Assembly (NCBI GenBank): GCA_903824185.1
Contig: CAIJVU010000082.1
Span: 1 to 64,000 of the forward strand
Source of the DNA: an uncultured Hyphomicrobiales bacterium
GTDB lineage: Bacteria; Pseudomonadota; Alphaproteobacteria; Rhizobiales; Beijerinckiaceae
DNA: 64,000 bases
Direction: 5' to 3'
Positions 32,126-48,999 of the stretch are shown piece after piece. The translations under genes and the position numbers were made by a program. The notes under the pieces are model-generated. The model ran no database searches, was not told the DNA's origin, and saw only the letters and a program-made list of their open reading frames with translations. The stretch's first letter is position 1, and every line of letters starts with the position of its first letter.

Positions 32126-32445
32126 GGGATGTCTCCAAGGATCAGATGCAAGGGGTCAAATTATCAAAACAGGATAACCCTTTTCAGGGCGTGAAAGAAA
32201 GAGGGGCTATCCAATCATGCGGATACGCCGTCAGGCCGTTTCGGAAGCCTTGGGCTTCAAAGACGGCAACAGAAAACTAACGCTTTTGGGCCAAGTTTAG
32301 CAAGAACCTTTCCGCATGAAGCCATAAACAGCATCAATTGTGCACATAATCTCTGATTTTGCGCGGTTTTTAATTGTTTCCAGGGCATAGTGAGACCTAT
32401 AATTGTGCTCGAACGATCTTTGCCCATGTTGTGTTCGATTTTGGG
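32126..32445. other. Divergent intergenic region upstream of aminotransferase and formylglutamate amidohydrolase genes
   Basis: These 320 bases separate two divergent genes and must hold both promoters. A weak hairpin (GCCTTGGGCTTCAAAGACGGC area near 32246-32268) is visible. I see no convincing operator, RNA or gene. Confidence 0.4.
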
Positions 32446-33348
32446 ATGGCCGCGCCTTCAATGCTGGATGACGAGACCCTTTTTTCCGAGACCCTTTTTT
32501 CATTGTCTGTGCGCGGCGGGTTTAAAACGCCGCTTTTGTTCAATTCGCCGCATTCGGGACGCCGTTACCATGATGCTTTTTTAGGGCAAGCGGTGCTTGA
32601 TCCCTCACGGTTGCGGCGCTCTGAGGATATGGCGGTGGATGAATTGTTCGCGCCCGTGGTTGATAAAGGCCATGCCTTGTTCAAAGCGCATTTTCCAAGG
32701 GCCTATGTCGATGTGAACCGCGAGCCCTATGAGCTTGATCCCCGCATGTTTGACGGCGATATGCCCGCTTATGCCAATACCAAATCCTTGCGGGTGGCCG
32801 CTGGACTGGGAACCATCGCCCGGGTTGTGGCGGATGGGGAGGAGATCTACGCCAAGAAATGGCCGGTCTCAGAGGCTTTGGCGCGGATTGAAACGATCTA
32901 TCATCCCTATCATGAGGCCTTGTCCTCACACCTTCTGTCCATCAAACAAAGCTCTGGCTTTGCGGTGCTGGTGGATTGTCATTCCATGCCCACGCTTTCG
33001 GCCTATCAGCAGGAGCGGCGGGCCGATATGGTCATTGGTGACCGTTTCGGAAAAAGCTGCGATCCCCTGTTATGCGATGTGATTGAAGAGCATCTCACAG
33101 GCTGCGGCTATAAGGTCAGACGCAATAAGCCCTTTGCAGGCGGCTTTATCACCGAACATTACGGACGGCCGCTGCAGGGACTACATGCGGTGCAAATTGA
33201 AATCAGTCGTGCGCTTTATATGGATGAGCATCATTACACACTCACGTCGGGTTTTGCGGATCTGCAAAAGGATTTGATGGGGATGGTGGACCAGCTGGGT
33301 GAGGCGGTGACGCTTTTAAGGCCTGTATGGGGATTGGCTGCGGAATAA
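32446..33348 (+). CDS. N-formylglutamate amidohydrolase family protein
   Basis: A 300-residue zinc-dependent hydrolase of the N-formylglutamate deformylase family, which releases formate from N-formyl-glutamate in one branch of histidine degradation. Key segments are LLFNSPHSGRRY, HFPRAYVDVNREPYELDPRMF, IYHPYHEAL, LVDCHSMP and the C-terminal GLHAVQIEISRALYMDE. No hut genes adjoin, so it may instead act on other formyl- or aspartyl-type amides. The start is uncertain: ATG at 32446 is preferred over a TTG at 32374 and over ATG at 32461, and no good ribosome site marks any. Near the N-terminus a 15-base tandem duplication gives the repeat ETLFSETLFS (32471-32500). Confidence 0.82.
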   Translation: MAAPSMLDDETLFSETLFSLSVRGGFKTPLLFNSPHSGRRYHDAFLGQAVLDPSRLRRSEDMAVDELFAPVVDKGHALFKAHFPRAYVDVNREPYELDPRMFDGDMPAYANTKSLRVAAGLGTIARVVADGEEIYAKKWPVSEALARIETIYHPYHEALSSHLLSIKQSSGFAVLVDCHSMPTLSAYQQERRADMVIGDRFGKSCDPLLCDVIEEHLTGCGYKVRRNKPFAGGFITEHYGRPLQGLHAVQIEISRALYMDEHHYTLTSGFADLQKDLMGMVDQLGEAVTLLRPVWGLAAE

Positions 33349-33387
33349 GGCTATAAATCCCCTGATCATCGAAAGAACGGATGCACC

Positions 33388-33416
33388 AAAAAAAAGGGCC
33401 GCCCAATCGGGCGGCC
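33388..33416 (-). terminator. Rho-independent terminator of the small RNA
   Basis: A perfect 8-base GC stem (GGCCGCCC with GGGCGGCC, loop of four) is followed on the minus strand by eight T residues. No minus-strand protein gene ends here, which is what pointed to an RNA gene. Confidence 0.88.
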
Positions 33417-33478
33417 AAGTCTAGGGAGGAAACGCCCAAGGAGGGCAACGGGATGTCGCGCAATGGCGCGATATCGCG
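33388..33478 (-). ncRNA. Candidate small RNA with anti-Shine-Dalgarno loop
   Basis: The 500-base gap before hisN contains a self-contained minus-strand transcription unit with no open frame. From a predicted start near 33478 the RNA would read a hairpin closed by GCAACG/CGTTGC, then a short hairpin GCCC-TCCTT-GGGC, whose loop region CCUCCUU equals the 16S anti-Shine-Dalgarno sequence, then single-stranded GTTTCCTCCCTAGACTT, then a strong terminator. Rhizobial alpha-r14/NfeR1 and cuckoo-type sRNAs also present CCUCC motifs in loops to block ribosome binding sites, and this resembles them in layout. Length is about 90 nucleotides. The family match is inference; the terminator and the loops are seen directly. 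Confidence 0.65.
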
Positions 33479-33483
33479 TTGCA

Positions 33484-33514
33484 ATAATATGCTCTTGCGT
33501 TGCACAAAAAGCAA
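33484..33514 (-). promoter_or_regulatory. Possible promoter of the small RNA
   Basis: On the minus strand TTGCTT (33514-33509) precedes TATTAT (33489-33484) with a 19-base spacer, slightly long. It places the start near 33478. Confidence 0.4.
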
Positions 33515-33864
33515 GATTTTTTTCAGAAAACATCAAAGGTTATTTTCTTAAACAAAAACAATAGTTTAATACCGTTAAAGAGGTCCATCAGCCCGTTTCA
33601 AGCTATGTTATAAACGCATGTCTTCTGTGTATCAGGCGCTTATTTAGCTTTTTTTAGCAAGGCTATGTTGCAACGCAGCATGAGAATCGAAGTCTTTGAC
33701 CGCCCTTTTCGGCCTCATCTGGGATGAAATGCCGGAGGATGGCGCTTAGGCAGTCGCCATGACCCCGCATCTTTGTTATGGAGGCATGTCGGGAAGACGG
33801 TATGTGTGTTCTTCAAAGACCATCTCCGTGGTCGCTTGAACATGGATACAAGAGGGGGGATTAA
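33515..33864. other. Intergenic region between the small RNA and hisN
   Basis: About 350 bases, AT-rich at its left end. They must carry the hisN promoter. A T7 run (33650-33656) and a GACCAT/GTGGTC mini-hairpin near 33818-33834 are the only visible structures; no gene is recognised. A long open frame across the right half on the minus strand is only antisense shadow of hisN. Confidence 0.4.
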
Positions 33865-34656
33865 ATGTCGGCGGTTGATTTTGCGTTTTTTGTTGATGAA
33901 TTGGCCAGCCGGTCCGGTGCGGCGATTCTTCCTTTTTTCAGAACCTCGCTGAGTACAATGGACAAGGCGCAAGGCGGTGCCTTTGATCCGGTGACCGAAG
34001 CCGACAAAGCCAGTGAGGCTGTGATGCGGCAATTGATTACCCGCACCTTCCCCGAACATGGTATCATCGGCGAGGAATATGGCAGCGAACGTGAAGACGC
34101 CGAATTTGTCTGGGTTCTGGATCCGATTGATGGCACGCGCGCCTTTATTTCCGGCCTGCCTGTGTGGGGGACGTTGATTGGTCTGACGCGCAATGGCCGT
34201 CCTTGCTATGGCATGATGAATCAGCCCTTCACGCGGGAACGCTTTTTCGGGGATGGCGGCATGGCCAAATGGCGCGGGCCCACAGGGGAGCGCGTGTTGA
34301 AAACCCGTCCTTGCGCTCAATTGTCCGATGCCACCTTGTCGACCACCACACCGGCCATGTTTGCGGGCGCGCAGGCCGACGCCTATCGGCGTGTCGAAGA
34401 GCAGGTGAAACTCGTGCGTTATGGCACGGATTGTTATGCCTATTGCATGGTAGCCGCCGGTCATATGGATTTGGTGATCGAAACGGCACTGAAACCCTAT
34501 GACATTGTGGCTTTGGTGCCGATTGTCGAAGGGGCAGGCGGGGTTGTCACAGATTGGCAGGGCGGCTCGCCTGCGCAAGGCGGCTCAGTGGTTGCGTCGG
34601 GCGATCATCGCTTGCATGAGCAAGCACTGCGCTATCTGCGTGATGTTGTCGCTTAA
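33865..34656 (+). CDS. hisN: Histidinol-phosphatase HisN (inositol monophosphatase family)
   Basis: A 263-residue magnesium-dependent phosphatase of the IMPase superfamily. Metal ligands lie in DPVTEADKASEAVM, GEEYG and WVLDPIDGTRAFISGLPVWGTLIGL, with the second-site ALKPYDIVALVPIVEGAGG near the C-terminus. The F-I-S-G-L-P variant after DPIDGT is typical of HisN, the phosphatase converting histidinol phosphate to histidinol in Alphaproteobacteria and Actinobacteria, rather than inositol phosphatase SuhB. The ATG follows AGAGGGGGG. No his operon lies here, so the substrate rests on family features; a broader sugar phosphatase is the alternative. Confidence 0.85.
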   Translation: MSAVDFAFFVDELASRSGAAILPFFRTSLSTMDKAQGGAFDPVTEADKASEAVMRQLITRTFPEHGIIGEEYGSEREDAEFVWVLDPIDGTRAFISGLPVWGTLIGLTRNGRPCYGMMNQPFTRERFFGDGGMAKWRGPTGERVLKTRPCAQLSDATLSTTTPAMFAGAQADAYRRVEEQVKLVRYGTDCYAYCMVAAGHMDLVIETALKPYDIVALVPIVEGAGGVVTDWQGGSPAQGGSVVASGDHRLHEQALRYLRDVVA

Positions 34657-48835: not shown

Positions 48836-48995
48836 AAGTGCGGAGCCACAATAGCCGTGGGACGGTCGATCCCGGGAACCTACAAAGTAGGTGGGCGCCG
48901 TGATGACCAAGTCCACGGACCTGGCCAGGGACAGCTCCCTTAAGGATCGATAAGGCCCCGGGAATTGCAGTTGTCCTCACGCACTCCGCAGCCCC
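48836..48995 (-). ncRNA. ssrS: 6S RNA
   Basis: A structured RNA of about 160 nucleotides that mimics an open promoter and binds sigma-70 RNA polymerase in stationary phase. On the minus strand the ends pair (TGCGGAG near the 5' end with CTCCGCA near the 3' end). Internal segments characteristic of alphaproteobacterial 6S are visible: GAGTGCGTGAGGAC, CTTAAGGGAGCTGTCCCTGG, GGACTTGGTCATCACGGCG and CCACCTACTTTGTAGGT. The position directly upstream of 5-FCL is the classic location. A possible -35 TTGCAC lies at 49026-49021; the -10 is weak. Exact ends are estimated. Confidence 0.85.
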
Positions 48996-48999
48996 GCCC

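What the first reader, a model, noticed from the sequence alone, without database searches (positions are those of the whole stretch)
33388..33514. Candidate small RNA with a CCUCCUU anti-Shine-Dalgarno loop
A minus-strand promoter, about 90 bases with no frame, and a perfect GC terminator with eight T stand alone in an intergenic region. The RNA would show the 16S anti-SD heptamer in one small hairpin loop and a second CCUCC in a single-stranded stretch. Rhizobial alpha-r14/NfeR1-type sRNAs use such loops to repress many ABC-transporter mRNAs. It could be a new member or a new family.
Basis: partly seen in the sequence, partly recalled or inferred. Interest (0 to 1): 0.7.

Follow-up and report, generated by a model that had tools for sequence, protein, structure and literature searches.

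The report
Known carbon-storage small RNA, alpha-r8/MmgR

Summary
Window 33388-33478, minus strand, is a small-RNA gene with a comparative promoter, about 90 nt and a GC terminator. It is neither alpha-r14/NfeR1-type nor a new family: it scores 70.5 bits (threshold 41) against Rfam RF00519 suhB/mmgR, the alpha-r8 family.

The CCUCCUU loop is common in the order (45 of 67 copies examined) but rare in other orders (2 of 98). At this locus it differs in the three congeners that have the linked copy, while 10-mer, promoter and hairpin stem are kept.

Added result: two PhaR-type operators 21 bp apart cover the -35/-10/start region. Such sites stand upstream of 61 of 67 copies in the order (shuffle mean 1.9) and 55 of 98 in other orders (shuffle mean 2.5). 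PhaR and alpha-r8 co-occur across genomes (not corrected for phylogeny). PhaR repression of mmgR is published for Sinorhizobium, so this extends a known circuit. Verdict: already known, modest extra interest.

The parts
33388..33478 (-). alpha-r8 (RF00519 suhB/mmgR) sRNA, about 90 nt; the 5' end is inferred from the -10 box, the 3' end from the T run
   Evidence: RF00519 match 33382-33453, 70.5 bits vs threshold 41; fold z -4.66; same-genus comparison
33397..33416 (-). rho-independent terminator stem-loop (8 GC pairs), followed by C and TTTTTTTT
   Evidence: terminator helix keeps pairing with changes on both sides in 5 of 7 pairs over 25 sequences
33423..33432 (-). family 10-mer UUUCCUCCCU, single-stranded anti-Shine-Dalgarno segment
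   Evidence: TTTCCTCCCT in 65 of 67 order-level and 87 of 98 other-order copies examined; published as the pairing core (PMC12559287 section 7)
33434..33446 (-). hairpin GCCC-UCCUU-GGGC with CCUCCUU at 33444-33438
   Evidence: a hairpin just 5' of the core in 66 of 66 order-level and 87 of 92 other-order copies that have TTTCCTCC; loop sequence varies in the genus
33486..33514 (-). predicted promoter: -35 TTGCTT (33514-33509), 17-nt spacer, -10 CATATT (33491-33486)
   Evidence: conserved block in window, L038, L042, L045; not an E. coli consensus promoter
33490..33510 (-). PhaR-type operator 1, TTTTTGTGCAACGCAAGAGCA, filling the -35/-10 spacer
   Evidence: 14.4 bits, 2nd best site in the 64-kb window
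33469..33489 (-). PhaR-type operator 2, TATTATTGCAACGCGATATCG, overlapping -10 and predicted start, 21 bp from operator 1
   Evidence: 11.7 bits, 10th best in the window; 24 neighbouring site pairs spaced exactly 21 in the 67-copy set
32374..33348 (+). convergent N-formylglutamate-amidohydrolase-like (FGase) gene; start codon uncertain
   Evidence: TIGR02017 111.6 bits, below its cut-off of 278.75; homologue convergent with the RNA in 42 of 67 copies
33865..34656 (+). divergent histidinol-phosphatase (hisN)/suhB-type gene upstream of the RNA
   Evidence: TIGR02067 332.3 bits, above its cut-off of 275.15; homologue upstream in 35 of 77 matches examined
33663..33683 (.). third PhaR-type site, best in the window, between the RNA promoter and hisN
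   Evidence: 19.9 bits; a site of 10 bits or more lies 80-450 nt upstream of the RNA in only 4 of 35 copies with the hisN-type neighbour, two of them explained by neighbouring tandem RNA copies, so probably lineage-specific

Best explanation
This is the alpha-r8 (RF00519; MmgR/SisA-type) trans-acting sRNA at its usual locus. Shown here: family membership, location, structure, and two PhaR-type sites over its promoter. Inferred: PhaR represses the gene when there is little polyhydroxybutyrate (PHB). When PHB accumulates and takes up PhaR, the RNA is made, binds Hfq by its U-rich 3' end, and pairs through UUUCCUCCCU (helped here perhaps by the CCUCCUU loop) with Shine-Dalgarno regions. This blocks translation of selected uptake and carbon-metabolism mRNAs, such as those of ABC-transporter solute-binding proteins, and so acts as a brake on carbon import and storage.
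For: RF00519 at 70.5 bits. Second copy at 66.4 bits and a third, below threshold, at 38.4 bits in the same genome. FGase homologue next to 42 of 67 copies. Helices keep pairing through double changes: covariation score 0.422 vs 0.165 shuffled, 0 of 500 shuffles as high. PhaR gene, two phasin genes and an hfq gene present. PhaR-type sites upstream of 61 of 67 order-level copies (shuffle mean 1.9) and 55 of 98 other-order copies (shuffle mean 2.5, largest 6 of 20 runs), and in front of both phasin genes of this genome at 16-24 bits. PhaR binds the mmgR promoter in S. meliloti (PMC12542648, passages and section 18 part 1). Pairing through the 10-mer is demonstrated for Caulobacter SisA with the sponge CrfA (PMC12559287 section 7).
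Against: No expression data. No sign of direct phasin pairing: 34 of 39 background start regions pair with the RNA at least as well as either phasin (rough choice of starts). The 9-mer complement is not enriched in the genome: 18 sites against 14 for the reversed pattern. PhaR-type sites are missing in 35 of 86 other-order copies from genomes that have PhaR, and present in 4 of 12 copies from genomes without a detected PhaR. The phaR start region itself has no site of 9 bits or more. Co-occurrence of PhaR and alpha-r8 is not corrected for genome size or phylogeny.
Confidence: 0.85

Rival explanations
1. An alpha-r14/NfeR1-type or a new anti-SD sRNA family, acting mainly through the CCUCCUU hairpin loop.
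For: Loop with the heptamer; ABC-transporter candidates; CCUCC in the hairpin of 46 of 66 order-level copies.
Against: No alpha-r14 model among 15 matches up to E = 10; RF00519 far above threshold; loop not kept at this locus in the genus and in only 2 of 98 other-order copies.
Confidence: 0.03
2. A cis-acting element: antisense or leader RNA for the neighbouring FGase or hisN genes rather than a trans-acting regulator.
For: FGase and hisN-type neighbours recur in relatives.
Against: The RNA ends about 40 nt short of the FGase stop codon and points away from hisN. 25 of 67 copies, including the second one in this genome, show no FGase homologue in the stretch examined (up to 1.5 kb each side, some cut by contig ends). 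Published relatives act in trans (PMC12559287).
Confidence: 0.04
3. The sRNA is real, but the dyads bind another regulator than PhaR (for example a nitrogen regulator, or an unrelated protein with a TTGCA-type dyad).
For: 35 of 86 other-order copies in PhaR-bearing genomes lack a site; 4 of 12 in genomes without a detected PhaR have one. A review says NtrC also acts on mmgR in S. meliloti (PMC8401924, passages).
Against: The matrix was built from sites of S. meliloti promoters bound efficiently by PhaR, mmgR left out, and it finds strong sites at both phasin genes of this genome.
Confidence: 0.13

Closest known systems
alpha-r8 family, Rfam RF00519 (suhB; MmgR of Sinorhizobium meliloti)
   Same: Covariance-model match, 10-mer, hairpin before it, terminator, FGase neighbour (for the family), a PhaR-type dyad between -35 and -10
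   Different: A second PhaR-type site 21 bp downstream (the paper read lists one site for mmgR); loop UCCUU where the Rfam consensus has UUCUU
SisA-D of Caulobacter crescentus (alpha-r8)
   Same: 10-mer UUUCCUCCCU, several copies per genome, SisA linked to an FGase gene
   Different: Copy number: two above threshold and one just below here. The sponge RNA CrfA was not searched for by its own sequence
NfeR1 / alpha-r14
   Same: Anti-SD motif in a loop; transporter mRNAs as targets (PMC7143759, passages)
   Different: No covariance-model match up to E = 10; the main anti-SD here is in a linker, not in every loop
AbcR1/2, alpha-r15
   Same: Anti-SD segments; a review states partial homology to SuhB (PMC7143759, passages)
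   Different: No match up to E = 10; shorter RNA, different locus

Membership tests
alpha-r8 / RF00519 (suhB, MmgR) | covariance-model score above the gathering threshold | tested here: met
   70.5 vs 41 bits, model positions 1-77 of 77
alpha-r8 / RF00519 (suhB, MmgR) | single-stranded 10-mer UUUCCUCCCU | tested here: met
   present and unpaired in the predicted fold of the 89-nt RNA
alpha-r8 / RF00519 (suhB, MmgR) | weak hairpin just upstream of the 10-mer, and rho-independent terminator | tested here: met
alpha-r8 / RF00519 (suhB, MmgR) | linkage to the FGase gene | tested here: met
   adjacent and convergent; TIGR02017-like but below that model's cut-off; same in 42 of 67 copies
alpha-r8 / RF00519 (suhB, MmgR) | PhaR/AniA dyad in the promoter (as in S. 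meliloti mmgR; not a family-wide criterion) | tested here: met
   two sites, 14.4 and 11.7 bits; binding itself not tested
alpha-r8 / RF00519 (suhB, MmgR) | Hfq binding | not testable with these tools
   an hfq gene is present; U-rich 3' end
alpha-r14 / NfeR1 | covariance-model match | tested here: not met
   no alpha-r14 entry among 15 matches up to E = 10 in 33200-33700; that the library holds such a model is recalled
alpha-r14 / NfeR1 | three hairpins with the anti-SD motif in every loop (PMC7143759) | tested here: not met
   anti-SD in one loop and one linker; the 5' hairpin and terminator loops lack it

The most novel reading that the evidence does not exclude
Control of alpha-r8 RNAs by the PHB-sensing repressor PhaR is an old circuit shared by many orders of Alphaproteobacteria rather than a Sinorhizobium feature. 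In this order the promoter is often built around two operators two helical turns apart, and the RNA has commonly gained a second anti-SD site in its hairpin loop, so that stored carbon directly sets a brake on nutrient-uptake mRNAs.
Probability: 0.45. Interest if true: 0.45.

Novelty: already known. Interest (0 to 1): 0.22.

Why it matters
It removes a supposed new sRNA family and places the locus in a known one with a studied role in carbon storage. If the operator pattern is confirmed by binding tests, it could explain why alpha-r8 RNAs and PhaR tend to occur together, and it would make carbon-storage sensing by this RNA testable in species outside Sinorhizobium.

Tried and rejected
Alpha-r14, alpha-r15 or a new family: rejected on the Rfam results. 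BjrC1505 (25.5 bits), SorY (20.7) and anti-hemB (20.0) are below their thresholds.

Heptamer as a chance-proof signal: rejected, 5 found and 5.16 expected in the window.

Direct pairing with phasin mRNAs: no support; 34 of 39 background start regions pair at least as well as either phasin (background starts were chosen by a rough rule). For phaA, 4 of 39 do; suggestive only.

Enrichment of the 9-mer complement GGGAGGAAA in the genome: none, 18 vs 14 for the reversed pattern. Four of the 18 are alpha-r8 or alpha-r8-like loci themselves. Of the other 14, two stand four bases before an ATG and one before a TTG inside a longer frame. Orthologues of the two ATG genes were sought in 14 of the 60 relatives and found in 1 and 3 of them. 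Their start regions keep GGGAGGA in 4 of 5 matches, which is also what a strong ribosome-binding site looks like.

RNAalifold did not recover the first hairpin on the 25-sequence alignment; it proposed three GGG/CCC pairs without compensatory change. The named hairpin shows compensatory changes in 3 of 4 pairs, but only 77% of its cells pair. One row (L211) was cut at wrong coordinates and dropped. The 25 sequences were my choice from the copies in hand.

Rows dropped before counts: ten weak matches (L003-L008, L040, L043, L046, L048) are left out of the 67-copy set. That set holds 66 of the 96 above-threshold matches (rows counted by eye) plus one below threshold (in L069); the other 30 were not fetched. 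The other-order set holds 98 copies from all 95 such genomes with a match, but not every copy of those genomes.

Named-genome check: only the 80 best FGase matches, rich in Bradyrhizobium, with one (L078) that looks like the same contig as a relative already counted. 73 of 80 loci have an alpha-r8-like RNA by a text pattern on one strand; 76 of 87 copies have a PhaR-type site of 10 bits or more, 53 of 87 a pair 19-22 bp apart. No shuffle control was run on this set.

Full report
Observation. The RNA folds into a 5' hairpin, a small hairpin GCCC-UCCUU-GGGC, an unpaired linker holding UUUCCUCCCU, and an 8-pair GC terminator followed by C and eight T. The fold is more stable than shuffles (89 nt, z = -4.66). 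The CCUCCUU heptamer as such is expected about five times in the window and is found five times, so its presence proves nothing by itself.

Identity. A scan of Rfam at its curated thresholds finds two RNAs in the window: 6S RNA at 48839-48997 and RF00519 (suhB, 'Makes More Granules Regulator RNA') at 33382-33453, minus strand, 70.5 bits against a threshold of 41, over the whole model. No alpha-r14 or alpha-r15 model is among the 15 matches up to E = 10 in 33200-33700 (that the library holds such models is recalled). MmgR of S. meliloti and SisA-D of Caulobacter are alpha-r8 RNAs (PMC7143759 passages; PMC12559287 section 7); Rfam's RF00519 bears the name mmgR. The neighbourhood also fits: PMC12559287 states that most species carry one copy next to an FGase gene. 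Here the convergent gene is N-formylglutamate-amidohydrolase-like (111.6 bits, below that model's cut-off) and the divergent gene is a histidinol phosphatase above its cut-off, with weaker matches to inositol-monophosphatase models.

Copies and conservation. The genome has a second copy above threshold (66.4 bits, C78), a match at 38.4 bits (C39, with the 10-mer and a 26.1-bit PhaR-type site) and weaker ones. Of 60 relatives, 55 have a match at E up to 0.001 and 49 one above threshold. I took 67 copies from the own genome and those relatives. TTTCCTCCCT is in 65 of 67; the loop CCTCCTT in 45 of 67 (30 of 42 FGase-linked, 15 of 25 not linked); an FGase homologue next to 42 of 67. In 98 copies from 95 genomes of other orders of the class the 10-mer is in 87 and CCTCCTT in 2. 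Next to the 80 best FGase matches in named genomes (many Bradyrhizobium) CCTCCTT is in 74 of 87 copies. So the loop heptamer is a lineage-specific variant, not a family hallmark. At the window's own locus the three congeners with the linked copy (G001, G002, G003; none found in G004) have loops TTCTT, TATCT and ACCTT where the window has TCCTT, while promoter, 10-mer and the hairpin stem are kept. The Rfam consensus has UUCUU. A review already mentions an anti-SD motif in the first loop of MmgR (PMC7143759, passages).

Structure. On 25 diverse sequences the named hairpin and terminator have 88.7% of cells paired against 75.3% shuffled, 36 cells with double changes against 9.2, and a covariation score of 0.422 against 0.165 (0 of 500 shuffles as high for these three). 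Sliding the partners destroys this. The first hairpin alone is weaker (77% paired), and RNAalifold did not pick it.

Promoter and PhaR. The simple promoter scan found nothing, but four same-genus sequences share TTGCTT-N17-CATATT and the following stretch almost letter for letter and diverge just upstream. I built a matrix from 19 sites of S. meliloti promoters bound efficiently by PhaR (PMC12542648 Table 3), leaving mmgR out. In the 64-kb window its 1st, 2nd and 10th best sites lie in this one intergenic region: 33663-33683 (19.9 bits), 33490-33510 (14.4) and 33469-33489 (11.7). The last two are 21 bp apart and cover the -35/-10 spacer and the -10/start region. Upstream of 67 copies a site of 10 bits or more occurs in 61; dinucleotide shuffles give a mean of 1.9 (largest 4 in 20 runs), and stretches elsewhere in the same loci give 0-3 of 64-67. 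Paired sites 19-22 bp apart occur in 31 of 67 (27 of 42 FGase-linked, 4 of 25 not linked); 24 neighbouring pairs are exactly 21 apart. In other orders 55 of 98 copies have a site; shuffles give a mean of 2.5 (largest 6 in 20 runs), other offsets 0-6 of 96-98. Split by PhaR: 51 of 86 copies in PhaR-bearing genomes, 4 of 12 in genomes without a detected PhaR. Both phasin genes of the genome have two strong sites each (16-24 bits); the phaR start region has none of 9 bits or more. PhaR is in 50 of 60 relatives. Against alpha-r8 above threshold the table is 46 both, 4 PhaR only, 3 alpha-r8 only, 7 neither (Fisher p = 8e-5). Across 191 class genomes (own genome not counted, alpha-r8 matches at E up to 1e-5) it is 87, 28, 10 and 66 (p = 3e-18). 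Genome size and shared ancestry are not corrected for and inflate both values.

What is known of this. PMC12542648 reports PhaR binding to the mmgR promoter and lists one site there; its table also lists two sites each for the phasin genes phaP1 and phaP2, so paired sites as such are known (passages and section 18 part 1). A review (PMC8401924, passages) says regulation relies on a conserved dyad between -35 and -10 and that NtrC activates. The first operator here is therefore the known one. In the passages read I saw no mention of a second site at the sRNA promoter or of the site outside Sinorhizobium. The most relevant papers (Lagares 2016 and 2017; Ceizel Borella 2018) were not read; one was looked up and is not held. 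So no claim of absence from print is made. Paper searches made.

Targets. The 9-mer complement GGGAGGAAA occurs 18 times in the genome, the reversed pattern 14 times. Four are alpha-r8 or alpha-r8-like loci. Of the other 14, two are ribosome-binding sites four bases before an ATG, and both genes encode solute-binding proteins of the ABC type (PF13458, 154.4 bits; PF13416, 84.6 bits). The start regions of orthologues, found in few of the 14 genomes searched, keep GGGAGGA in 4 of 5 matches. The phasin start regions pair poorly.

Mechanism. Shown: family, locus, structure, operator-like sites, presence of PhaR, phasins and Hfq. Inferred from published relatives: Hfq-dependent pairing of the 10-mer with Shine-Dalgarno regions, PhaR repression relieved by PHB, and a brake on uptake and storage.

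Verdict. The operator pattern across orders is the one item worth following.

Noticed in passing
window 48839-48997, minus strand: 6S RNA (RF00013, 83.4 bits).
   Followed up: no
window 33663-33683: Strongest PhaR-type site of the window lies between the sRNA promoter and hisN/suhB; rare at this position in relatives (4 of 35 including the window).
   Followed up: partly
L003 1501-1573 (own genome, C39): Probable third alpha-r8 copy just under the Rfam threshold (38.4 bits) with the 10-mer and a 26.1-bit PhaR-type site upstream.
   Followed up: partly
L006 1501-1611 (own genome, C19): Weak alpha-r8-like match (25.9 bits): GCCC hairpin followed by TTTCCTCCCC, but the T run lies much further away.
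   Followed up: no
L040, L043, L046, L048 near position 1501: In all four same-genus relatives a short sRNA-like element with TATCCTCCCAAGACTTC and a terminator-like end, 32-35 bits to RF00519, just downstream of a shared CTAGCATC.GGGG...GGGTCCACCA stretch that ARAGORN and the Rfam thresholds do not identify.
   Followed up: partly
L049 1461-2081: Three alpha-r8 copies within about 620 bp next to the FGase gene, each with at least one PhaR-type site, two of the three with a 21-bp pair.
   Followed up: no
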